Source: Syntrophaceae bacterium (GTDB lineage: Bacteria > Desulfobacterota > Syntrophorhabdia > Syntrophorhabdales > WCHB1-27). Taken from it: a stretch of DNA of 16,983 nt. Under the pieces are notes generated by a model. That model saw only the letters and a list, made by a program, of their open reading frames with translations, was not told the DNA's origin and ran no database searches. Shown one piece after another: positions 2,238 through 15,819 of the stretch. Numbering within the stretch: the first letter of the stretch is position 1; the number at the start of each line of letters is the position of its first letter. Made by a program: the position numbers and the translations under genes. The stretch is from positions 7,317 to 24,299 of the forward strand of contig PLSJ01000449.1 of the NCBI GenBank assembly GCA_003165115.1, in the 5' to 3' direction.

Positions 2238-4195
2238 TGTGCGGCATTTGTGGGACGTGGGGAAGGGCCGAACCGGAGTCGGTGGGTAGGATGATACGTG
2301 CCATGGAGCACAGGGGGCCTGACGATAGGGGCATATACAGCGATGTGCGTGCCTGTCTGGGAATGTCACGCCTCTCCATTCTGGACCTGAGCAACGCCGC
2401 TCATCAGCCCATGCATAACGAAGATAAGACAATCTGGATCGTTTACAACGGTGAGATGTATAACTTCCAGACCGAGCGAGAGCTTCTCGAAAATTCCGGG
2501 CAAAAGTTCTTTTCGAGATCAGACACGGAGGTAGTTCTCAAGCTTTACGAACGTTACGGCGACGACTTCCTGCTGAGGCTGAGGGGTATGTTTGCCCTGG
2601 CGATCTTTGATAAGCGGCGGGGGCCCGGCCGGGAGCGCATGATCCTCGCCAGGGATCACCTGGGCATCAAACCGCTGATCTACGCCCGTTCAGGCAACTC
2701 ACTCGTTTTTGCTTCCGAGCTGAAAGCCTTGCTCGCATCCGGCCTTATAGCGTCGACGATCGATCCGGTTTCCTTACGGCTTTTACTCAGTTACGGCTCC
2801 ATTTATCAACCTCACACGATGATAGAGGGGGTCAGCATGCTCCTTCCTGCCCATCGACTCATTGTCGACGAGAAAGGAGAGCGCCTCGAGCGCTATTGGT
2901 CGATCGAGGTCGACCGACTGAGGCCGCTCAGGGCCAGGCCATACGAGGAGTTGGTCGAACGCGTGGCTGAAAAGCTTGAAGAATCGGTGCGGCTGCAGAT
3001 GGTAAGCGATGTGCCGGTCGGGGCATTCCTGAGCGGGGGAGTTGACTCGTCACTCTTGGTCGGTCTCATGACCAGGATCGCGGGCCGGCGAGTGAAGACT
3101 TTTTCGGTCGGCTTTGAAGCTGAGGGAGCCGGCCTGGATGAAAGCCAGGAGGCGGAAAGGAGCGCCCTTTTCTTTGGCGCAGACCATACGAGGGTCGTGG
3201 TCACGGGGTCTGACCTGAAGAACCGGGTCGAGCACTTCGTGGAAGCCCTGGACCAGCCATCGGTAGATGGAGTAAACAGCTACTTTGTGTCAATGGCAGC
3301 AAAGCAAAGCGTAACGGTAGCCATATCGGGTACGGGCGGAGACGAACTTTTTGCAGGTTATCCATGGTTTGCCGAGATGGCGCTGTACGAAAGGAAAAAG
3401 GCTGGGAAGGAAGGAAGATTCCTTAATCGACTCCTTGGGTTGCCTCTCCTTGGTCCATTCTTCGGCCGGGCGGGGATGCCCCGGCACAGCGACAAGGAGT
3501 TTCTCAATCGGTACGGAGCCACTTACCAGGTGTTTGGTCCTGCCGGGGCGCCGGAGTTCATGAAGAGGGAGCCGAATGGCTCCGAAGGGATGGATAAGGA
3601 CGCTGCCCGGGATCTGGCGGGGATTGACGAACTTCCCCGCGCGGCGACGATCGAGCGCGTTTCAGCCTTGTGCTTACGCGGCTACACGGCCAATCAGCTC
3701 TTGCGGGATATAGACGCCGTATCCATGGCGCACTCTCTCGAGGTGCGGGTGCCATTTCTGGATGTGCCGCTCACGGACCTGGCGTTCTCTCTGCCCTTTT
3801 CCTCGAAGCTGGGGGATATCGACGGTATTGACACCTCCTTTCACACCGCGTCATACCGGGAGACAGGCGCCAAAAAGGTGCTCATCGACGCAGGTCGAAA
3901 ACTTGGTATTCTGCCTGACTCAATCGATTGCCAACCCAAGCGTGGTTTCACCATGCCGCTCGACCACTGGTTAAAGGGCCCACTGAAAGACGTGCTTTTC
4001 GATACGCTTTCCACCCGCTCTGTCAAATCACGTGGATTACTGGAACCCCGGGCAGTAGAGCAGGTGAAGGACGGATTCCTGGAAGGGGTCATACACTGGA
4101 CAAGGCCATGGCTTCTGGTGGTGCTCGAACTCTGGTGTCGCCAGACGTTGGGGAATTCCCTGACGAGCGATAGTCGCCAGGTGGCAAACGGATGA
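2237..4195 (+). CDS. asnB: Glutamine-hydrolysing asparagine synthase family amidotransferase
   Basis: This 652-residue protein has the full two-domain layout of AsnB. The N-terminal class II glutamine amidotransferase begins M-C-G-I-C-G, where Cys2 becomes the N-terminal nucleophile after Met removal, with H-R-G-P-D-D, Y-N-G-E-M-Y-N-F and S-D-T-E-V-V following in family order. The C-terminal ATP-pyrophosphatase domain carries the P-loop-like L-S-G-G-V-D-S-S, S-G-T-G-G-D-E-L-F-A-G-Y, and S-L-E-V-R-V-P-F-L-D near the end. The family makes an amide from a carboxylate using glutamine and ATP. In polysaccharide clusters, AsnB-like enzymes are often thought to amidate sugar acids (uronamides) rather than make free asparagine; which applies here is inference. 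The gene overlaps the preceding one by one base and the next by ATGA at 4192-4195. All key residues seen are intact. Confidence 0.93.
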   Translation: MCGICGTWGRAEPESVGRMIRAMEHRGPDDRGIYSDVRACLGMSRLSILDLSNAAHQPMHNEDKTIWIVYNGEMYNFQTERELLENSGQKFFSRSDTEVVLKLYERYGDDFLLRLRGMFALAIFDKRRGPGRERMILARDHLGIKPLIYARSGNSLVFASELKALLASGLIASTIDPVSLRLLLSYGSIYQPHTMIEGVSMLLPAHRLIVDEKGERLERYWSIEVDRLRPLRARPYEELVERVAEKLEESVRLQMVSDVPVGAFLSGGVDSSLLVGLMTRIAGRRVKTFSVGFEAEGAGLDESQEAERSALFFGADHTRVVVTGSDLKNRVEHFVEALDQPSVDGVNSYFVSMAAKQSVTVAISGTGGDELFAGYPWFAEMALYERKKAGKEGRFLNRLLGLPLLGPFFGRAGMPRHSDKEFLNRYGATYQVFGPAGAPEFMKREPNGSEGMDKDAARDLAGIDELPRAATIERVSALCLRGYTANQLLRDIDAVSMAHSLEVRVPFLDVPLTDLAFSLPFSSKLGDIDGIDTSFHTASYRETGAKKVLIDAGRKLGILPDSIDCQPKRGFTMPLDHWLKGPLKDVLFDTLSTRSVKSRGLLEPRAVEQVKDGFLEGVIHWTRPWLLVVLELWCRQTLGNSLTSDSRQVANG

Positions 4196-5214
4196 AGCCC
4201 GAACACCTCCAAATCCTCCGCTCTCCTGAGAGCAAGAAGAGCCTGCAATGCAAGCAGCCTGTATTCGTAGACGGTCGCATCAGGTCCGGAGTGTTGACGG
4301 ATGGAGAATACTCCTATCCGATTATCGATTACATCCCCAGGTTTGTCCCTTACGACAACTACTGTTCGAGCTTTACGTTGGAGTGGGAAAAGCATCCGGA
4401 CATCCTGTACGGCAAATACTCCAATTACTCTGCCTACGAAGAGAGGTTTCACAAGGAGACGCGGTGGGAAGGAGATCTCCGGGGCGAAGTTATTCTTGAG
4501 GCCGGCTGCGGTCCCGGGGCCTTCACGCGCTACGCGCTCGAAACCGGCGCTACGGTGGTTTCCTTCGACGCATCGAGAGGCGTCGAAAAGAGCCATGAGA
4601 TGAATGGAAAGAATGACAATTGCTGCATCCTCCAGGCCAGCATCTATGAAATGCCGTTTCCCGATAATTTTTTTGACAGAATATTCTGCTTCGGTGTCCT
4701 GCAGCATACCCCCGACCCAAGAGGCAGCCTCAGGGCACTGGTTTCAAAGTTGAAGCCGGGCGGACAATTGGCGTGCGACATCTACAGCGTCCCTCCCTCG
4801 CATCATCCCTACACGGGCCTGCTAAAGACAAAATATTTTCTTCGCCGGTTTACCCGCGGGAAGGAGCCGAACAAACTCTACCGACTGATCAGCCATTATG
4901 TGGGCGTAATGTGGCCCATAACGCGGGTAATGCGCAGAATCCCAAAATATGGCATACAAATAAACAGGAAATTCCTGTTCGACGACTACGACACGAGGCT
5001 GACGAACATGGACCGGAAACTGCATAAGGAGTTTGCCCGCCTCGATATTTTTGACATGCTTTCTCCTGCCTACGATTTGCCCTCGACTGTAGAGGAACTC
5101 GGAAAGTGGTATCAATTGGCCGGTCTTGACAGCGTGGAGGTCCATTTCGGGTACAACGGGATCGAGGGCAGGGGTAGGAAGCCTATTCACCACGATGGAG
5201 GCGGCCATCAATAA
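4192..5214 (+). CDS. Class I SAM-dependent methyltransferase with Trm112-like N-terminal segment
   Basis: This 340-residue protein starts with about 50 residues resembling a Trm112/YcaR-like head (M-K-P-E-H-L-Q-I-L-R, then Y-P-I-I-D-Y-I-P-R-F), but only one cysteine remains (C20), so metal binding there is doubtful. The Rossmann domain follows: V-I-L-E-A-G-C-G-P-G at about 100-109, F-D-A-S-R at 125-129 for the SAM ribose contact, then G-V-L-Q-H-T-P-D-P at 168-176 and L-K-P-G-G at 187-191. Residues 200-290 are basic and aromatic and may contact a membrane or glycan acceptor. It overlaps the stop of the asnB-like gene by four bases (ATGA), indicating translational coupling, and overlaps the next methyltransferase by 20 bases. 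A T7 run at 4668-4674 lies in the gene without disturbing the frame. The acceptor is unknown. Confidence 0.87.
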   Translation: MKPEHLQILRSPESKKSLQCKQPVFVDGRIRSGVLTDGEYSYPIIDYIPRFVPYDNYCSSFTLEWEKHPDILYGKYSNYSAYEERFHKETRWEGDLRGEVILEAGCGPGAFTRYALETGATVVSFDASRGVEKSHEMNGKNDNCCILQASIYEMPFPDNFFDRIFCFGVLQHTPDPRGSLRALVSKLKPGGQLACDIYSVPPSHHPYTGLLKTKYFLRRFTRGKEPNKLYRLISHYVGVMWPITRVMRRIPKYGIQINRKFLFDDYDTRLTNMDRKLHKEFARLDIFDMLSPAYDLPSTVEELGKWYQLAGLDSVEVHFGYNGIEGRGRKPIHHDGGGHQ

Positions 5215-5932
5215 TTCGCGCCCCGACTGGCCTGCGGCAGGAAGGAGGCAGCCCGCACCCGATGACCCCGATTATCTGGGCTCGAGAGGTCTGTCCCGCG
5301 GCCTGCAAAGAGCGATCGACCTTGAACTCAAGGGCAAAAAGGGGCTCCGTATTCTCGATGTGGGTTGTGGCCAGAAGGCGTTCTACCCTTTTTTTGAGCC
5401 ATTCTGCAAAACGTATATCGGTACCGACATCCTCAGGGGTGACTCTCTCATCGATATCGTCTGCCCGGCCGAAAGTCTCGCCGTGAAGGATGAATGGGCG
5501 GATCTGGTCCTTTGCCTCTCCGTTCTCGAGCACGTCAACAACCCGGGTAACGTGGTAGGCGAACTCTACCGGGTAGTGAAACAAGGCGGACTGGTGTTCG
5601 CCTCAACCCATGGATGCTTCCCCTGGCATCCTTATCCTCAGGACCACTGGCGCTGGACACAAACGGGTCTGCCCTTGCTTTTTAAACAGCACGCAGCTTT
5701 TTCTTCGGTCCACCTCTTTTCTACCCGCGGCAGTATGTCGGGCATATTCTTCCTTCTCGCACATTATAGCTACCGGTGGACGAGCGAAAAAGGGAAATTG
5801 TTCCTTAGGAGGCCTCTCACTACATTGATCAATCGACTCGGCGAATTCCTTGACCGGAAGAGTCCCGGCCTCGCCGATATCAACCGTCCTGTAACAGCCA
5901 TACCGGAGTTTTTTGTCATTGCCAAAAAGTAG
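5195..5932 (+). CDS. Class I SAM-dependent methyltransferase (Methyltransf_11-like)
   Basis: The protein is 245 residues from ATG 5195. The frame is open back to 5126, but that would overlap the previous gene by 89 bases and add residues unlike the family. No strong ribosome binding site is visible; coupling to the upstream gene (20-base overlap) is likely. The SAM loop I-L-D-V-G-C-G-Q-K is at about 53-61, the acidic ribose-binding end of strand 2 is G-T-D-I-L near 76-80, and S-V-L-E-H-V-N-N-P lies at 109-117, followed by V-K-Q-G-G. The segment H-P-Y-P-Q-D-H-W-R-W-T at 145-155 is typical of methyltransferases found among polysaccharide genes and probably shapes the acceptor pocket. The C-terminal third has hydrophobic stretches (I-F-F-L-L-A-H-Y) that might sit against a membrane. 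The exact acceptor is unknown. Confidence 0.85.
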   Translation: MEAAINNSRPDWPAAGRRQPAPDDPDYLGSRGLSRGLQRAIDLELKGKKGLRILDVGCGQKAFYPFFEPFCKTYIGTDILRGDSLIDIVCPAESLAVKDEWADLVLCLSVLEHVNNPGNVVGELYRVVKQGGLVFASTHGCFPWHPYPQDHWRWTQTGLPLLFKQHAAFSSVHLFSTRGSMSGIFFLLAHYSYRWTSEKGKLFLRRPLTTLINRLGEFLDRKSPGLADINRPVTAIPEFFVIAKK

Positions 5933-8096
5933 GCCAGACGACAGGTTCGACGACGATCCGTATCCGGAGAGACCGCGGATCCTCTTCATCGGGCATCCTT
6001 CGAGCACCCACACGCACTCATGGGTGGATAACGTTTCCGGAAGCTTCAACGTGCGTCTTTTTGGCCTGCCTACGGGTTATCCGCCTTCCAACTGGCCGGT
6101 CAGGACTTATGTTACCTTCATCCACCTCCCTGAGGGACTCAACCCGGATACAAGACGCTGGCTCCATCCGACCCCGGAAGACATCAGGCTACAACAGACG
6201 GCCCACCCTTCCTTCGTCGCTCCTGCCGCTTCCTACCAGGAATGGCTGGTAAAAATCATTGAAGAATGGCAGCCCCATGTGGTGCACACCTTCGGCTTGG
6301 ACCCCGCGTCTTTCCTCCTTTGCGCGATAAAGGATTCCCATGATTTACCAAGCTCCTTCACGTGGGTAGTGCAGGCTCGGGGGGGACCCGATCTCGCCCT
6401 CAACCGCCTTCTGTCTCAGTACTCACTCAAGATAACCGACGTCTTGAGAAACTGCGACCAGTTCATTGCGGACAATGCGCAAAACTACGAATACGCGCGG
6501 GAATTGGGGCTAGACCAGCGCAAGGTATCTTCTCTCGGCGTGGTACCGGGGACAGGCGGGATAGACGTGGATAAACTCTCGTCCATGTGGAGCGGGCCGA
6601 CGTCGAAAAGGGAGCGGATAATACTTTGGCCTAAGGCATATGAGGGACCCCAGAGCAAAGCCCTGCCTGTGTTCGAAGCGATAAGGCTTTCGTGGGATCG
6701 TATTGCTCCATGCACGATCCTTATGACGGCAGCCATACAGGAGGAAATCTACCAGTGGTACCAGACACTGCCGGAAAAGATCAGGAAAAGCTGCTCGCTC
6801 ACCGACCGGATCCCGAGAAGCGAGATCTTCCGGGTTATGGTGAAGAGCCGGGTTGTCCTCTCCCCATCCCTCCTCGACGGCATTCCTAATCTGCTTTACG
6901 AGGCAATGGCTACCGGTTCATTTCCCATTTTTTCCCCGCTCGAGACAATTGTGGACATCGTAGAGAGTGAGAAAAATCTGCTCTATGCCCGCAACCTGTA
7001 TCCGGAAGAAATCGCTCATGCACTGGACCGTGCAATGAATGATGACCCGCTCGTGGACGCCGCCGCGCTGCACAATATGAACCTGGTAAAGGAACGGGCC
7101 GACCGGAGACTGATCGTCCCGAAGATAATCTCCTATTATGAGCGAATCTCGGGCCGTGAAAGAGATGAGGAACAGGCCCGTCGCTGCGTAAGGGAACAAC
7201 TTTCATCGGAAGGAAGGCCGCCGGCGACGGACGTTGCACCGCCCTGCGACCAAGCTTTGTCGGATGACAGGCAGGAAGCCATGCTGCTCTGCCGTGCCGT
7301 TGAGATGAAAAATGGCAGGGCCCTGGAGGTGGTCGACCGGGTCCTCGAGCTTCACGATTCGAAGATTTCCGGTATTTTTCTGAAGGGCATGTCCCTGAAT
7401 GATCCCCAGGTCCTTGGATTGCTCGACAGGGCGTTAAGCCTGGGTAATCCCCAGGTCTTCGCCTCACTTGACAGGGCATTAGGTCTGAATGATCGCGCAG
7501 TGTTCGGCGTGCTCGACAGGGCCGTAAGCCTGAATGATCCACGTGTCTTCGCCCTATTCGACAGGGCCGTGAACCTAAATGATCGCAGGTTGTTCGATTC
7601 GATCGACCGGGCCATTAGCCTGAATGATCCACGGGTCTATATGCTGCTCGACCGGGCCATGAGCCTGAATAGCCCCCACGTGGTTGATTTGCTCGATCGG
7701 GCCATAGAGCGTCACGATGCCGACATGTTTGGTCTCCTCGATAGGGCTACGGGAGTCGACAGCCGTGTGCCGTGTGGTCTCCTGGACCGGGCGGCGGCGC
7801 TGCACGACCCAGGGGTGCTCGAACTGCTTGACAAGGCCATAGAGTTGAACGATGCCGATATGTTTGCTCTCCTCGATCGGGCTACGGTGGTGAATAACTC
7901 TGTACTGTTCGGTCTCCTGAATCGCGCTCTGGTGCTGCCTGACGCACGATTCCATGGCCTTCTGAAAATGGCCGCGGCCCTGAACGATCCGTGGGTCTTC
8001 AGGCTCATGACTAACAAGCACGGGTTCTTTCCCGCAAAAGTACTCGTGGCCTTCCACGTATTGATGAGAAGATGGGGCATAGGCAAGGGCCTCTGA
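5913..8096 (+). CDS. GT-B glycosyltransferase (GT4-like) fused to a long C-terminal array of 15-residue repeats
   Basis: This 727-residue protein has no ATG near its 5' end. TTG 5913 (GGAG at 5905-5908, spacer 4) or TTG 5919 (spacer 10) is the likely start, overlapping the previous gene by up to 20 bases. Residues about 22-410 form a GT-B fold: R-I-L-F-I-G-H-P-S-S-T-H-T-H near 22-35, a lysine pair (K241 and K249) where GT4 enzymes bind the nucleotide diphosphate, and L-L-D-G-I-P-N-L-L-Y-E-A-M-A-T-G at 320-335, the GT4 donor-site motif with E330. A polar linker (about 410-457) leads to sixteen 15-residue repeats at 458-697, then a short tail with basic residues (R-R-W-G-I-G-K-G-L). The family adds sugars from nucleotide donors to lipid-linked glycans at the cytoplasmic face. 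Typical GT4 enzymes are about 350-420 residues, so the extra 300 are the oddity. Donor sugar unknown. Confidence 0.82.
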   Translation: MSLPKSRPDDRFDDDPYPERPRILFIGHPSSTHTHSWVDNVSGSFNVRLFGLPTGYPPSNWPVRTYVTFIHLPEGLNPDTRRWLHPTPEDIRLQQTAHPSFVAPAASYQEWLVKIIEEWQPHVVHTFGLDPASFLLCAIKDSHDLPSSFTWVVQARGGPDLALNRLLSQYSLKITDVLRNCDQFIADNAQNYEYARELGLDQRKVSSLGVVPGTGGIDVDKLSSMWSGPTSKRERIILWPKAYEGPQSKALPVFEAIRLSWDRIAPCTILMTAAIQEEIYQWYQTLPEKIRKSCSLTDRIPRSEIFRVMVKSRVVLSPSLLDGIPNLLYEAMATGSFPIFSPLETIVDIVESEKNLLYARNLYPEEIAHALDRAMNDDPLVDAAALHNMNLVKERADRRLIVPKIISYYERISGRERDEEQARRCVREQLSSEGRPPATDVAPPCDQALSDDRQEAMLLCRAVEMKNGRALEVVDRVLELHDSKISGIFLKGMSLNDPQVLGLLDRALSLGNPQVFASLDRALGLNDRAVFGVLDRAVSLNDPRVFALFDRAVNLNDRRLFDSIDRAISLNDPRVYMLLDRAMSLNSPHVVDLLDRAIERHDADMFGLLDRATGVDSRVPCGLLDRAAALHDPGVLELLDKAIELNDADMFALLDRATVVNNSVLFGLLNRALVLPDARFHGLLKMAAALNDPWVFRLMTNKHGFFPAKVLVAFHVLMRRWGIGKGL
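7284..8003 (+). repeat. Coding tandem repeat: 16 units of 45 bp (15 residues)
   Basis: Sixteen full units of exactly 45 bp lie in frame, encoding residues 458-697 of the glycosyltransferase. The consensus is L-L-D-R-A-x-x-L-N-D-P-x-V-F-x. Units 4-10 and 12-14 fit best; units 1-3, 15 and 16 are worn, as expected at array ends. D3-R4-A5 is nearly invariant in units 4-14. No gaps or frame changes occur. Aligned by eye, units 6 and 8 match at 33 of 45 bases with a 17-base identical run, units 10 and 13 at 34 of 45, and units 11 and 14 at 32 of 45, so the array expanded by DNA duplication rather than by convergence. Each unit probably makes one helix of about 12-13 residues starting after Asn-Asp, with Pro at the first helix turn in many units. 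It does not match the length of TPR, HEAT, Sel1 or ankyrin repeats. Confidence 0.93.
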
Positions 8097-10318
8097 TGGG
8101 GATCGAATTGGACCGTCTGCTGTTGGTAACCATCATCACGCCTGCATACAATAGGGGCAGTTTTCTCGAAGAGACGATTCAAAGCGTCATTTCCCAGGAT
8201 TACCCTTGCATCGAATACATCGTCCTGGACGATGGTTCTACCGACAATACAGGGGACATACTCAAGAAGCATAACGGGCGTCTCTCCTGGGAATGCCATC
8301 CGAACATGGGCGAAACAAGAACGGTAAACAAGGGTTTCTCCATGGCGAAGGGAGAAATCGTTTGCGTGGTCAATTCGGACGATCCTCTCCTCCCCGGTGC
8401 CGTCTCCGGCTGTGTGAAGGCCCTCGAACAACATCCCGACGCCCTTGCCGCGTATCCGGACTGGCTCGAGATCGATTCCGATTCCCATCCTCTCGATGAA
8501 TTACGCCTCCCCGACTATAACATCTACAACATGCTCGAGGATTTCAACGTAGGGCTCGGACCCGGGACGTTCATCCGCAAACGCGCCTTCGATTTAATCG
8601 GTTACAGGAATTTGAGCCTCAAGTACACCGGCGACCTGGATTTCTGGTTTCGTCTTGCTTTAAGGGGTCCCCTGATCCACGTCCCCCAGGTCCTCGCTAC
8701 TCACCGGACCCACGGAGATTCTGCATCGGTTGCCGCGAAAGGCGCACGCATGTCCGGCGAGTTGGTGGAAATGGTGACCAACCTGTACTCCCAGCCGGAC
8801 CTGCCAAACGGTCTCTGCAAGATGCGTTCGAGCGTGCTTTCTCAGGCCCACGAGGTGGCGTCGCACTACTGTGGGTCGGATGTCAGGGCCGCTCGGAGAC
8901 ATAAAGTGAGGGCCTTCCGGCTCAACCCGTCGAGATTTATCCTTCAATGGCTCCGTTCGGGGGTTGTCCGGATCGCGCCCGGCCTCGGGCTGGCTTCGGT
9001 GAAGCGGGTCGTGCTCGCGGTATCCCTTAAGATGGCTTCGCTGGTTCTCCCCCGGCTGCGCGCCCCTGTATGGCTGTTTCTTCATTTTCAGACATATCTA
9101 TCGGAGACCTTGAGCGGCAGGACCGAAAGAGCCGGTAGCCCCGCGGCCGATCACAAATTCATCTTCGTCTCCCATGCCCTGCCCCCCTCCTGGTCAGGCC
9201 AATCAGTGGTTATCGGAAGACTGCTCCGTGATGCCGATCCAGCCGGATACTGTCTGGTCCATTCCGATGATTACGGCGTGCAAGGCAATCCTGATTTCAT
9301 CCCCACGCTCCCTGGGAAGTACTGCCAGGTGCCAAGAAAGCCCCTTAACGATCTCCTCAACCGTCCCACGGACAGACGAAAATGGCTGAGCCTTATGCGG
9401 GCCGCCTTCAGCCGGGGCTGGGATATCGCCAGAATAGCCACCAGTGAACGGGCATCGATACTCGTTGCCGCCACCGGCAATGTTATCGACCTCCCTGCCG
9501 CCTACCTGGCCAGCCGGCTCCTTCACATCCCTTTCTTTCCCTATCTGTTCGACGATTATCAGAGCCAGTGGCAGGAACCGATCCTGCATTCTTTTGCGAA
9601 CACTTTCGCTTCTCTGATGTTTTTGAATTCAAAAGCCATCATCGTGCCGAATGAGTTTCTGGCACAAATAATGTGCAGCAGATACAAAGACGCACGGGTG
9701 CTCACCATTCACAATCCGTGCGAGAGCGACGAACCAGACGGCCCGGGAACAGCCTGCACAGATTCGGCCGTCATCTACACGGGCGCCATCTATCACGTCA
9801 ACTTCGGCGCTTTTCGCAATTTGATCACTGCCTTGGACGTCCTCGGCCTTCCCGACCTCAAGCTGCACCTCTATACGGCCCAGCCTGAGGATTATCTGAA
9901 GGCGGAAGGCATATGCGGAAGCAGGGTCGAGTATCATGCGCATGTACCGCCTAGAGAGGTCGCCCGTGTGCAGGGCCGTGCCGCCATACTCTACGTGCCC
10001 TTTTCTTTTGACCCGGCACTGCTGCCGATTATCAAAACTTCGGCGCCGGGAAAGCTTGGAGATTACCTGGCAAGTGGCCGGCCCATACTCGTCAACGCCC
10101 CGTCCGACTCTTTTGTCGCCTGGTATATGACGAAACACCGCTGTGGCCTGGTGGTCGACACGGAAGACCCCGAAGAACTTGCCCGAGCCATCGGCCGCCT
10201 CATCCGTGACCCTGACCTGGTCTCATCTCTCACTGCAAATGCAAGAAGGCGCGTCCTTCTCGATTTTGCCCCCGCTCAAGCCCGGAAGCGCTTTTTAGAA
10301 GAGGTTCTCGCCCAATGA
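8096..10318 (+). CDS. Two-domain glycosyltransferase: GT2 (GT-A) fused to a GT-B glycosyltransferase
   Basis: The start is ATG 8096, which shares one base with the preceding TGA; an earlier ATG at 8072 would only add eight unlikely residues. Of 740 residues, the first 235 or so are a GT2 domain: T-P-A-Y-N-R-G at 15-21, D-D-G-S-T-D at 45-50, N-S-D-D at 93-96 as the metal-binding DXD-like motif, and T-G-D-L-D-F-W-F-R-L at 178-187 carrying the likely catalytic base. A middle stretch (about 265-345) is basic and hydrophobic and may touch the membrane. From about 353 a GT-B domain begins (F-I-F-V-S-H-A-L-P-P), with I-Y-T-G-A-I-Y and L-G-D-Y-L-A-S-G-R-P-I-L-V in the positions expected for the donor domain. 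The enzyme could add two successive sugars. It overlaps the next gene by ATGA. The GT-B half lacks the classic E-x7-E, so its activity is less certain. Confidence 0.86.
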   Translation: MGIELDRLLLVTIITPAYNRGSFLEETIQSVISQDYPCIEYIVLDDGSTDNTGDILKKHNGRLSWECHPNMGETRTVNKGFSMAKGEIVCVVNSDDPLLPGAVSGCVKALEQHPDALAAYPDWLEIDSDSHPLDELRLPDYNIYNMLEDFNVGLGPGTFIRKRAFDLIGYRNLSLKYTGDLDFWFRLALRGPLIHVPQVLATHRTHGDSASVAAKGARMSGELVEMVTNLYSQPDLPNGLCKMRSSVLSQAHEVASHYCGSDVRAARRHKVRAFRLNPSRFILQWLRSGVVRIAPGLGLASVKRVVLAVSLKMASLVLPRLRAPVWLFLHFQTYLSETLSGRTERAGSPAADHKFIFVSHALPPSWSGQSVVIGRLLRDADPAGYCLVHSDDYGVQGNPDFIPTLPGKYCQVPRKPLNDLLNRPTDRRKWLSLMRAAFSRGWDIARIATSERASILVAATGNVIDLPAAYLASRLLHIPFFPYLFDDYQSQWQEPILHSFANTFASLMFLNSKAIIVPNEFLAQIMCSRYKDARVLTIHNPCESDEPDGPGTACTDSAVIYTGAIYHVNFGAFRNLITALDVLGLPDLKLHLYTAQPEDYLKAEGICGSRVEYHAHVPPREVARVQGRAAILYVPFSFDPALLPIIKTSAPGKLGDYLASGRPILVNAPSDSFVAWYMTKHRCGLVVDTEDPEELARAIGRLIRDPDLVSSLTANARRRVLLDFAPAQARKRFLEEVLAQ

Positions 10319-11565: not shown

Positions 11566-12755
11566 TGATGTCCAAGTTGGCTTTGGATGGTGGCCAGCCC
11601 GTCAGGGCTTCTATGCTCCGCTATGCGGGACAAAGCGTAGACGCGGCCGACAGGCGGGCCGTAGAGGAAGTCCTTCGCAGTGACTGGCTCACCACCGGCC
11701 CGGCTGTCGCATCTTTTGAAAGATCCCTTTGCGATTTCACGGGAGCGCGGCATGCCGTGGCGGTGAACTCGGGTACGGCAGCGTTGCATGCTGCCGCTTG
11801 CGCTGCAGGCATCGGTTCGGGAGACGAGGTCATTGTGCCGGCAATTTCCTTTGTGGCCAGCGCGAACTGCGTGCTTTATCAACGGGGAACCCCGGTCTTT
11901 GCCGATCTTTGTCCCGATACCCTGAATATCGATCCCACCGATGTCGAACGGAAGATTACCCCCAGGACACGTGCTATCGTAGCTGTGGATTTCGCGGGAC
12001 ACCCTTGTGATCACGACGCCTTGAGTGGGTTAGCGCGCAACTATGGAATACCCGTCATTGCAGACTCCGCCCACTCCCTCGGCGCCGTTTATCAAGGGAG
12101 AAACGTAGGCACCTTGCAGCGGTTCAATACCTTTAGTTTTCACCCGGTCAAGCATATCACTACGGGCGAGGGCGGCGCCGTATTGACGGATGACGAGAAG
12201 ATGGCTCATTCCATGCGTTCCTTCAGGCATCATGGCATCGACTTCGATCTACACGCACGAGGAAAGATCAACTCCTGGGAATATGACGTGGTGACGCTCG
12301 GATTCAACTACCGCATCCCGGACATCAATTGCGCCCTCGGCATAAGCCAGCTTACTAAGCTCAAGGGGTGGCTGGAAAGGCGCAGGGCTATTGTAACCGC
12401 CTACCGCAAGGCCATGGCTGAGCTACCGATGCTCCAATTGCCGGAAGAGCGTCCAGATTGCCTCTCCGCCTGGCACCTCTATGTTGTACGGCTGAACGCC
12501 GAGACCCTGAATGCTTCGCGGGCAGAGGTGTTTGCCGCACTGCGCGCAGAAAATATCGGCGTCAATGTACATTATATTCCCATACCCTGGATGACCCACT
12601 ACGCCAATCTCGGCTATGGTCGTGGTCAGTGGCCTGTGGCCGAGACGGAGTATGAGCGGCTGCTGAGCCTGCCCCTGTTCCAGGACATGACGGACCAGGA
12701 CATGACGGATGTGATAAAGGCCCTCGACAAGATATGGAACGCTTATCGCAGGTGA
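11565..12755 (+). CDS. pseC: PseC-like PLP-dependent sugar aminotransferase (DegT/DnrJ/EryC1/StrS family)
   Basis: The 396-residue protein matches the PseC branch of the DegT family from end to end. Near the N-terminus, S-D-W-L-T-T-G-P-A-V at 39-48 is a family signature; A-V-N-S-G-T-A-A-L at 66-74 binds the PLP phosphate, A-D-S-A-H-S at 166-171 holds the PLP-nitrogen aspartate, and F-S-F-H-P-V-K at 190-196 supplies the Schiff-base lysine K196, followed by T-T-G-E-G-G-A-V. L-G-F-N-Y-R-I-P-D and V-H-Y-I-P-I-P sit where expected. PseC aminates a 4-keto-6-deoxy sugar nucleotide using glutamate, giving a 4-amino-4,6-dideoxy sugar in pseudaminic acid synthesis. No PseB, PseG, PseH, PseI or PseF is in view, so the product may instead be a 4-amino-6-deoxyhexose for the glycan. 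ATG 11565 overlaps the upstream TAA; ATG 11568 is equally possible. A 15-bp duplication lies near the 3' end. Confidence 0.85.
   Translation: MMSKLALDGGQPVRASMLRYAGQSVDAADRRAVEEVLRSDWLTTGPAVASFERSLCDFTGARHAVAVNSGTAALHAAACAAGIGSGDEVIVPAISFVASANCVLYQRGTPVFADLCPDTLNIDPTDVERKITPRTRAIVAVDFAGHPCDHDALSGLARNYGIPVIADSAHSLGAVYQGRNVGTLQRFNTFSFHPVKHITTGEGGAVLTDDEKMAHSMRSFRHHGIDFDLHARGKINSWEYDVVTLGFNYRIPDINCALGISQLTKLKGWLERRRAIVTAYRKAMAELPMLQLPEERPDCLSAWHLYVVRLNAETLNASRAEVFAALRAENIGVNVHYIPIPWMTHYANLGYGRGQWPVAETEYERLLSLPLFQDMTDQDMTDVIKALDKIWNAYRR
12681..12710 (+). repeat. Two tandem 15-bp units inside the pseC-like gene
   Basis: The units at 12681-12695 and 12696-12710 differ at one base of 15 and encode Q-D-M-T-D twice. 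The segment sits where DegT aminotransferases normally read 'L-P-L-F/Y-x-x-M-T-D-x-D', so the protein is not obviously longer than its family. It may be a replication-slippage trace or chance. Confidence 0.7.
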
Positions 12756-14419: not shown

Positions 14420-15130
14420 GTGAAGACGCTCCTTATCATACCCGCTCATAATGAAGAGAAATGCCTGCCGGGTCTGCTGGAAGAAGTGCGCCGGGCAGGC
14501 TACGATGCCGTCGTCGTCAACGACGCTTCCTCCGACGCGACGGAGTTGTTGGCCAGGACAGCCGGATTCTCCGTGCTCTGTCTCCCCGTGAATCTCGGCA
14601 TCGGCGGAGGAGTGCAGACCGGCTTCATCTATGCCTTGCGCAATGGCTACGACGTTGTCGTCCAGGTGGATGGCGACGGGCAGCACGATCCCGGAGAGGT
14701 TCCCCGGGTCATCGGCCCTATCGCCGCGGGTGAGGCGGACTGCGTTGTCGGTTCCCGTTATATGCCCGCGGCCCCCGATACAGGGTATAAGACGCCTTTT
14801 GCCAGGCGGATGGGCATGTACTTTTCTACGGCCATCCTGCAGTTGGCTACGGGCTTACGCATCCATGACACCACCTCCGGCTTCCGCGCACTCAACAGGG
14901 CCGCCTTCGGCTTCTTCGCCAGGGAGTATCCGGTCGACCACCCGGAAGCAGAGTCGCTGCTCTTGCTGCACCAGGCTGGCTTTCGCGTCCTAGAGGTTCC
15001 CGTCAGGATGCGTGGCCGCGCAGGTGGGCAATCGCTTTTTACCTTCTTCCGTGCCATTCTTTATCCCCTGCGGGTGATCATAGGGTTCATGGGCATTGTC
15101 TTCAAAACATCCCGGAGGCAACAGAGTTGA
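14420..15130 (+). CDS. GT2 glycosyltransferase, polyprenyl-phosphate sugar synthase type (DPM1/GtrB-like)
   Basis: The gene starts at GTG 14420, 9 bases after the previous stop and behind an AGAAGAA stretch. The 236-residue product has the compact GT-A layout of dolichyl/undecaprenyl-phosphate sugar synthases: I-P-A-H-N-E-E at 7-13, V-N-D-A-S-S-D at 33-39, N-L-G-I-G-G-G at 58-64, Q-V-D-G-D-G-Q-H-D at 82-90 as the metal-binding DXD region, G-S-R-Y at 111-114, and D-T-T-S-G-F-R-A near 155-162 where the family keeps its acceptor-side motif. The C-terminal end is hydrophobic and basic (Y-P-L-R-V-I-I-G-F-M-G) and probably lies on the membrane, but there are no full membrane helices as in GtrB proper. 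The family loads a sugar onto polyprenyl phosphate at the cytoplasmic face for later transfer outside. The adjacent DUF2304 and GT-C genes support that role. The sugar is unknown. Confidence 0.88.
   Translation: MKTLLIIPAHNEEKCLPGLLEEVRRAGYDAVVVNDASSDATELLARTAGFSVLCLPVNLGIGGGVQTGFIYALRNGYDVVVQVDGDGQHDPGEVPRVIGPIAAGEADCVVGSRYMPAAPDTGYKTPFARRMGMYFSTAILQLATGLRIHDTTSGFRALNRAAFGFFAREYPVDHPEAESLLLLHQAGFRVLEVPVRMRGRAGGQSLFTFFRAILYPLRVIIGFMGIVFKTSRRQQS
15114..15118 (+). promoter_or_regulatory. Strong ribosome binding site deciding a TTG start
   Basis: GGAGG lies inside the end of the upstream GT2 gene, 8 bases before TTG 15127. This is the best Shine-Dalgarno match I noticed in the window and supports TTG as the start of the DUF2304 gene. 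Confidence 0.7.
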
Positions 15131-15819
15131 CGACATTTTCTTTCGCCGTGCAGAGCACCTGCGTTGGGGTGCTTGCCCTTCTCTTTGGCTACACCCTCTG
15201 GCTCATGCGATCCGGCCGACTCAGCGCGCACGTCACCGTACGCTGGGTCCTGGCTGAAAGCGCAGCCTTTCTGGCTGTGCTTCTGTGGCGGTGGTTACCC
15301 ATGTTCAGCTACACTTCGAGCCTGGGTGATCGCGAGCTATTGGTGGTTCTGGCGGTGATTTTTTTCTCCCTTATCGCCTTCCTGATCCTTGACTGCCTCG
15401 TACGCATATCAACCCATACCCATCAAATCAAGCTGCTGACACAGGAATTGGCGCTGTTGCGAAAATGCACCGAGCCGGATTGTTTCCAGCGCGAGGAGCG
15501 GTATTCCTCTCATGATGATGCGGCACTCCGTTGCCAGGCCGATCCTTTACCCAAAAAAATCGAAGCACATAATGAGAAATTTGCCTGCGCTACCGGTAAG
15601 GCTTCCTCATTATCGGGAAGTATATATATGATTCATCCCTACAGAAACCTGGTAAACCGGTTACTTCTATCGGTTTACCTATTGTGGCTGGCGGGCATCT
15701 TGATCCTGGCATGGGGAACCGCACCGTATATAATTCTACCTTGGGTCATCGTGCCACGGCCGCCGGAGTGGTTAACTTCTTTTGCAAGGCTTGTCTTCTT
15801 TCGTGACTACATCTTTTAG
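15127..15819 (+). CDS. DUF2304 membrane protein with a long C-terminal extension
   Basis: The gene starts at TTG 15127, overlapping the upstream TGA (TTGA) behind a clear GGAGG. Residues 1-112 look like DUF2304, a small membrane protein often found beside polyprenyl-phosphate GT2 genes: membrane helices at about 6-28, 40-57 and 69-92, then the amphipathic end I-K-L-L-T-Q-E-L-A-L-L at 101-111. The family is usually about 110-130 residues, but this protein continues to 230. The extra part has a polar stretch with four cysteines (C114, C119, C136, C154), then a hydrophobic stretch at about 178-209 that could form one long or two short helices, ending R-P-P-E-W. Its role is unknown; by position it may help flip or present a lipid-linked sugar, as GtrA does. 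An internal ATG at 15628 could also start a separate 63-residue peptide. It overlaps the following gene by 17 bases. Confidence 0.72.
   Translation: MTTFSFAVQSTCVGVLALLFGYTLWLMRSGRLSAHVTVRWVLAESAAFLAVLLWRWLPMFSYTSSLGDRELLVVLAVIFFSLIAFLILDCLVRISTHTHQIKLLTQELALLRKCTEPDCFQREERYSSHDDAALRCQADPLPKKIEAHNEKFACATGKASSLSGSIYMIHPYRNLVNRLLLSVYLLWLAGILILAWGTAPYIILPWVIVPRPPEWLTSFARLVFFRDYIF

What the first reader, a model, noticed from the sequence alone, without database searches (positions are those of the whole stretch)
7284..8003. A 16-unit, gap-free 15-residue repeat array fused to a glycosyltransferase
Seen directly: sixteen in-frame 45-bp units with consensus L-L-D-R-A-x-x-L-N-D-P-x-V-F-x follow an apparently complete GT-B domain. 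The hydrophobic spacing from the P/V-F positions through L-L, A and L fits one amphipathic helix of about 12-13 residues, with Asn-Asp acting as turn and helix cap. Frequent Pro in the turn argues against a continuous coiled coil, although 15/4 residues per turn is a known right-handed coiled-coil period. The length does not fit TPR, HEAT, Sel1 or ankyrin repeats. I do not recognise a named family; this may be an undescribed short-helix solenoid.
Basis: partly seen in the sequence, partly recalled or inferred. Interest (0 to 1): 0.78.

Follow-up and report, generated by a model that had tools for sequence, protein, structure and literature searches.

The report
Sugar-transfer enzyme with helix-repeat tail
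A bacterial sugar-transferring enzyme carries a tail of sixteen near-copies of one 15-residue helix, predicted to stack into a rod that probably docks or spaces the enzyme; its relatives with a whole tail have fewer copies, and the tail seems to have been swapped between different enzymes.

Summary
The array is real: sixteen gap-free 15-residue units (window 7284-8003) near the C-terminus of a 727-aa GT-B glycosyltransferase, followed by a 30-residue basic cap. Pfam, NCBIfam and PDB sequences gave no significant natural match. Known alpha-solenoids are the nearest folds, but only loosely. The family looks very rare: besides the window's own record, capped searches found three database proteins and one contig-end fragment; 2 of 46 genomes of its class have it. 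In the four proteins with sequence ahead of the array, that part is a glycosyltransferase. Unit number varies (16, 8, 8, 6; two of one 8 are degenerate, counted by eye). One relative pairs a GT domain of one lineage with an array and cap of another, so the tail seems to be an exchangeable module. One fragment holds exact 45-bp tandem copies, a sign of recent duplication. Best explanation: a scaffold that docks or spaces the enzyme in polysaccharide assembly. A WbdD-like chain-length ruler is possible but untested. New variant of a known kind; structure predicted, function inferred.

The parts
5913..8096 (+). 727-aa ORF: GT-B glycosyltransferase with C-terminal repeat array and cap (a database copy starts two codons later, 725 aa)
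5913..7157 (+). GT-B glycosyltransferase domain, residues about 1-415 (PF13692, PF00534 above cut-off)
7158..7283 (+). linker of low confidence (residues 415-449 pLDDT under 50) leading into a first helix (445-464)
7284..8003 (+). sixteen 45-bp / 15-residue units, predicted single-helix alpha-solenoid (residues 458-697)
8004..8093 (+). C-terminal cap LMTNKHGF..AK.L..FHVLMRRWGI (residues 698-727): 5 Lys/Arg, no Asp/Glu, predicted helix 708-720 at pLDDT under 50; 22 of 26 residues shared with P0002 and with P0003, 9 of 23 with P0004
8072..10318 (+). downstream GT2 + GT4 fusion; its GT2 half is 48% identical over 321 columns to the GT2 that follows the relative's array in L004

Best explanation
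The C-terminal third of this GT4-type glycosyltransferase is a modular alpha-solenoid built from 15-residue units of one helix and one tight turn (D-P starts the helix, L-N ends it), closed by a basic, hydrophobic cap. It works as a docking and spacing scaffold: the solenoid holds the catalytic GT-B domain at a distance or in an orientation relative to partner enzymes of the same polysaccharide cluster, or to the membrane where lipid-linked glycan is built, and the cap is the contact point. Shown here: repeats, unit-number variation, no named family, association with GTs, opposite affinities of the two halves of P0003. Predicted: the helical solenoid. Inferred: module exchange, docking, spacing and membrane contact.
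For: 16 exact-phase units; AF2 helices with a 15-residue pitch, pLDDT 73-89 in the blocks of residues 461-660, and roughly the first ten units again helical without the GT domain at 63-83. Fold neighbours are alpha-solenoid proteins: PUF, Kap95/Kap121, Efr3, PP2A B56, TOG. The genes around it are methyltransferases, asparagine synthase-like, aminotransferase, GT2 and GT4. P0003: its GT columns side with P0004 (112 against 28 for P0002) but its array and cap side with P0002 (44 against 5), sign tests 4e-13 and 8e-9. The cap is 22-25 of 26 identical among three proteins whose GT domains are 31-52% identical. Codon position 2 is better conserved among units than position 3 (0.65 against 0.42), which suggests selection on the protein.
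Against: No direct functional evidence. No Foldseek hit has E under 0.001, and the best VIA rows have rmsd near 10 A, within the tool's range for common helical arrangements. The cap is under pLDDT 50, its hydrophobic moment is modest (0.35-0.38, below those of two array helices, 0.41 and 0.61), and P0004's cap shares only 8-9 of 23 residues with the others. The array was found in only 2 of 46 genomes of the class, so it is not needed for such pathways in general. The AU test on the array part did not reject the GT grouping.
Confidence: 0.5

Rival explanations
1. Chain-length ruler: like the coiled coil of WbdD, the array sets the distance between the GT active site and a polymerase or the membrane, so that unit number sets glycan length; unit gain and loss then tunes it.
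For: N-terminal catalytic domain, helical spacer and basic hydrophobic C-terminus resemble the WbdD layout described in PMC5082667 and PMC11231755 (passages). Unit number is 16, 8, 8 and 6 (with two degenerate P0003 units counted by eye); exact 45-bp copies in L004.
Against: Not a coiled coil in prediction; the enzyme is a GT, with no sign that it terminates chains; no glycan data; no polymerase or ABC transporter among the 12 neighbouring ORFs scanned with Pfam, and none sought outside the window.
Confidence: 0.2
2. Array without a specific role: neutral growth and shrinkage of a 45-bp unit tolerated at the C-terminus.
For: Exact 45-bp copies in L004; rare distribution; identical amino acids share codons above expectation among near units (0.51 at lag 1 against 0.33 expected), so duplications have happened within the array.
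Against: Gap-free frame in 16 units, conserved residue pattern while third positions diverged, cap conserved 22-25 of 26 among three proteins.
Confidence: 0.15
3. Right-handed coiled coil with a 15/4 repeat, oligomerising the enzyme.
Against: Pro in 7 of 16 units just after the N-D; AF2 breaks the helix there in nearly every unit. AF2 was run on a monomer only.
Confidence: 0.05
4. Substrate-binding solenoid: the stacked D-R/K positions form a polar ladder that binds an anionic glycan, a nucleic acid or a peptide, as PUF or ARM repeats do.
For: D3 kept in 12 and R/K4 in 15 of 16 units; PUF and ARM folds among the nearest.
Against: Matches are general to helical repeats; near-neutral charge balance (34 acidic, 28 basic).
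Confidence: 0.1

Closest known systems
HEAT / ARM / PUF / TPR alpha-solenoids
   Same: Tandem helices stacked in an elongated array; nearest solved folds
   Different: Their unit is a two-helix (or larger) hairpin: about 40 residues for HEAT and 31-36 for PPR in PMC11514114 (passages). Here the unit is one helix in 15 residues. No significant Pfam match.
WbdD coiled-coil chain-length ruler
   Same: Glycan enzyme + extended helical spacer + C-terminal membrane-associated part (PMC5082667, PMC11231755, passages)
   Different: GT domain rather than methyltransferase-kinase; predicted turns every 15 residues rather than a coiled coil; ruler function untested
O-GlcNAc transferase (recalled, not tested)
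   Same: GT-B glycosyltransferase fused to a helical-repeat superhelix
   Different: TPRs, N-terminal, 34-residue units; different substrates (all recalled)
Designed repeat protein C3HR3_4r (8eoz)
   Same: Only solved chain whose sequence meets the array profile at E under 0.001 (4.4e-5 in sum; single stretches 9 and 0.064)
   Different: Taken to be a de novo design from its name; the match needs several gaps, so it does not keep the 15-residue phase; likely a shared Leu-rich helix pattern

Membership tests
GT-B glycosyltransferase of Pfam Glycos_transf_1 / Glyco_trans_1_4 type | Sequence profile above the curated cut-off | tested here: met
   PF13692 34.4 bits (cut-off 27), PF00534 31.5 (26.4)
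GT-B glycosyltransferase of Pfam Glycos_transf_1 / Glyco_trans_1_4 type | GT-B fold | tested here: met
   Foldseek best hits GlgM, BshA, MshA, PimA; E down to 4e-10
GT-B glycosyltransferase of Pfam Glycos_transf_1 / Glyco_trans_1_4 type | E-x7-E motif (recalled for GT4) | tested here: inconclusive
   Position is D322-x7-E330, both invariant in the 6 rows of A6: Asp in place of the first Glu
HEAT / ARM / PUF / TPR repeat | Two-helix (or larger) unit of about 30-42 residues | tested here: not met
   Sequence unit is 15 residues with one predicted helix, no sign of a 30-residue period
HEAT / ARM / PUF / TPR repeat | Match to the family's sequence profile | tested here: not met
   No such family listed at E up to 10 for the array alone or the whole protein (HMMER's filters drop most matches above about 0.1)
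HEAT / ARM / PUF / TPR repeat | Same fold | tested here: inconclusive
WbdD-type ruler | Coiled-coil spacer | tested here: not met
   Predicted helices of about 13 residues broken by turns (monomer model)
WbdD-type ruler | C-terminal membrane-associated helix | tested here: inconclusive
   Basic hydrophobic helix 708-720, moment 0.38, pLDDT under 50
WbdD-type ruler | Spacer length sets glycan length | not testable with these tools
   Needs glycan analysis

The most novel reading that the evidence does not exclude
A natural alpha-solenoid whose unit is a single 15-residue helix, half the usual two-helix unit, serving as an adjustable spacer on glycosyltransferases: units are added and lost by 45-bp tandem duplication and the whole tail is exchanged between GT lineages, so that glycan length or linkage changes by counting helices.
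Probability: 0.12. Interest if true: 0.8.

Novelty: new variant of a known kind. Interest (0 to 1): 0.52.

Why it matters
If the prediction holds, this is about the smallest helical-repeat unit one could have: one helix and one turn, all units alike, in a natural enzyme. That makes it a simple test bed for how helical repeats arise (duplication of 45 bp at a time) and a template for repeat design. On a glycosyltransferase it also makes a spacer or ruler idea directly testable by changing the number of units.

Tried and rejected
Named repeat family by sequence: Pfam, NCBIfam, PHROGs and PDB gave nothing convincing. Weak Pol III gamma/tau/delta clamp-loader hits (E 0.02-1.4) look like a shared helix pattern. 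The best PHROGs row for L004's array, a family of unknown function, has E 0.0038 over 18 residues and was not followed. The 8eoz hit (E 4.4e-5 in sum) breaks into two weak gapped stretches and was set aside.

Array outside glycosyltransferases: not found. Three protein searches over 5.8 billion sequences returned 4 proteins in all including the window's own, each with a GT domain; in each search only about 8,000 candidates sharing most words were scored, and lengths were limited by the query. Two genome-contig scans gave 18 and 198 pattern hits, none confirmed. Viral contigs: 42 pattern hits, none confirmed. Phages: none. Plasmids: with the array alone, three Streptomyces rows at E 0.02, 25% identity, not followed up; with whole P0003, 20 records, the 20 listed places lying in its GT part. 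In the class, three further weak places (E 0.11-0.34, L028-L030) appear at E up to 1 and were not followed up.

First thought that L002 (G028) was a GT without array; dropped, because its contig ends where the array would begin.

Tree-topology proof of module exchange: incomplete. The GT tree rejects P0002+P0003 (p 5.5e-6) and window+P0002+P0003 (p 0.004) as clades, the latter with the very long branch L003 in play. The array tree (5 rows, 116 columns) splits window+P0002+P0003 from P0004+L004 (100/100) but does not reject window+P0002 (p 0.40) or P0003+P0004+L004 (p 0.41) as clades. The claim rests on the opposite affinities of P0003 in its two halves and on branch lengths.

A 30-residue structural pair: no sequence sign of it (offsets 15 and 30 equal), although 90-bp copies score higher than 45-bp ones at DNA level within the array.

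Alignment A3 put GT parts of relatives onto the array and was not used.

Literature: searches for '15-residue repeat' + 'alpha-solenoid', 'single-helix repeat' + 'alpha-solenoid', '15-residue' with helical-repeat terms, and GT + repeat domain + Desulfobacterota returned no paper; some searches listed 12, 1 and 1 papers, none on this by title and abstract start. The library is openly licensed PMC only. Passages of PMC12775518 gave nothing used.

Full report
Observation. The ORF at 5913-8096 (+) encodes 727 residues. Residues 458-697 (window 7284-8003) fall into sixteen units of exactly 15 residues, consensus LLDRAxxLNDPxVFx. Self-identity at offset 15 and its multiples to 60 is 0.39-0.46, at the other offsets 0.02-0.15; none of 20,000 shuffles reached the observed sum. 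DNA units share 31-80% of bases; codon position 2 is conserved most (0.65), position 3 least (0.42). Where two units share an amino acid (Met and Trp left out), the codon is the same in 298 of 685 cases (0.44) against 0.33 expected from codon use of the window's genes, and in 0.51-0.52 at lags 1 and 3. So units probably arose by duplication within the array, some time ago, and were kept at the protein level.

What is attached. The first 415 residues or so are a GT-B glycosyltransferase: PF13692 and PF00534 above cut-off, Foldseek hits to GlgM, BshA, MshA and PimA. After the array comes a 30-residue cap with 5 Lys/Arg and no acidic residue. The neighbours scanned (12 ORFs) are a TylF-type methyltransferase, five further methyltransferases, an asparagine synthase-like protein, a GT2+GT4 fusion, a GT4, a DegT/DnrJ/EryC1 aminotransferase, a GT2 and a DUF2304 protein: by content a glycan cluster. 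Rfam finds no RNA family in the window at gathering scores.

Relatives. Three searches of 5.8 billion proteins (about 8,000 candidates scored in each) found, besides the window's own record P0001, P0002 (562 aa), P0003 (586 aa) and P0004 (440 aa, partial, labelled Desulfomonilaceae bacterium). Units by profile: 16, 8, 6 and 6; P0003 has two more degenerate units in phase (residues 427-456, by eye), making 8. In the window's class 2 of 46 genomes have the array at E up to 0.001: the window's own and G001. In a phylum sample it is 1 of 395, the window's own; G001 cannot have been in that sample, since the same profile hits it at 2e-52. G001's copy (L004) starts at a contig end inside the array; its first two whole units are identical over 45 bp and the partial unit before them reads the same. 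Assembly probably broke there. P0004 is 94% identical to L004 over residues 336-440 but shows fewer QANNTRVF units, so unit number differs or was collapsed. G028 has P0004's GT (97% over residues 1-309), on a contig that ends where the array would begin; it cannot be counted as array-less.

Module exchange. GT domains form two groups: window with P0002 (52% identity) and P0003 with P0004 (57%), 28-31% between groups. In the last six units and the cap, P0003 is instead nearest to P0002 (66 of 90 and 25 of 26), next to the window (52 of 90 and 22 of 26), and far from P0004 (41 of 90 and 8 of 23). Columns where P0003 matches only one of the two: GT 28 for P0002 against 112 for P0004; array and cap 44 against 5. 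With the window in place of P0002: 31 against 104, and 33 against 11. The switch lies at about residues 430-470 of P0003, near the start of the array. Tree tests are one-sided: the GT tree rejects P0003 with P0002, the array tree does not reject the GT grouping. I take exchange of the tail, or of the GT part in front of it, as likely. The GT2 gene after the array has a counterpart in L004 (48% over 321 columns), so the recombined piece may include it.

How it likely works. The GT-B domain transfers a sugar in surface-polysaccharide synthesis (from family and neighbours). The array is a helical stack that sets the place of this domain, and the cap touches a partner or the membrane. Exchange of the tail between GTs that differ in about 69% of residues suggests that it serves something common to both, such as location or assembly, rather than the catalytic reaction. 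The ruler version takes the WbdD system as model, where coiled-coil length sets O-antigen length (PMC5082667 and PMC11231755, passages). The layout is alike; the spacer fold and the enzyme are not, and nothing here measures glycan length.

Novelty. PMC11514114 (passages) gives about 40 residues for HEAT and 31-36 for PPR units. Three term searches for a 15-residue or single-helix solenoid unit returned no paper, and Pfam and PDB sequences gave no significant natural match. That makes it a new variant of the alpha-solenoid kind, in what looks like a very rare family.

Noticed in passing
window 6876-6902 (residues 322-330): The GT's usual E-x7-E motif (recalled) reads D-G-I-P-N-L-L-Y-E; Asp and Glu are invariant in the six aligned rows.
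   Followed up: partly
L004 1-136 and L002 1-120 (contig edges in G001 and G028): Contigs of two genomes break at or inside the array; P0004 joins a GT 97% like G028's (other family) to an array 94% like G001's, which hints at transfer of the cluster between families or at mis-binning.
   Followed up: partly
window 8072-10318: A second fusion: a GT2 and a GT4 domain in one 748-aa protein; in L004 the homologous GT2 (317 aa) stands alone, followed by another GT2-like ORF.
   Followed up: no
window 4192-8096: Neighbouring ORFs as listed overlap (4192/4195, 5126/5214, 5913/5932, 8072/8096), and the GT gene is called from a TTG start; probably one operon, true starts not settled.
   Followed up: no
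window 12680-12709: A perfect 15-bp duplication (CCAGGACATGACGGA x2) inside the aminotransferase gene.
   Followed up: no
window 15127-15819: ORF with a DUF2304 match overlapping the end of a GT2 gene.
   Followed up: no
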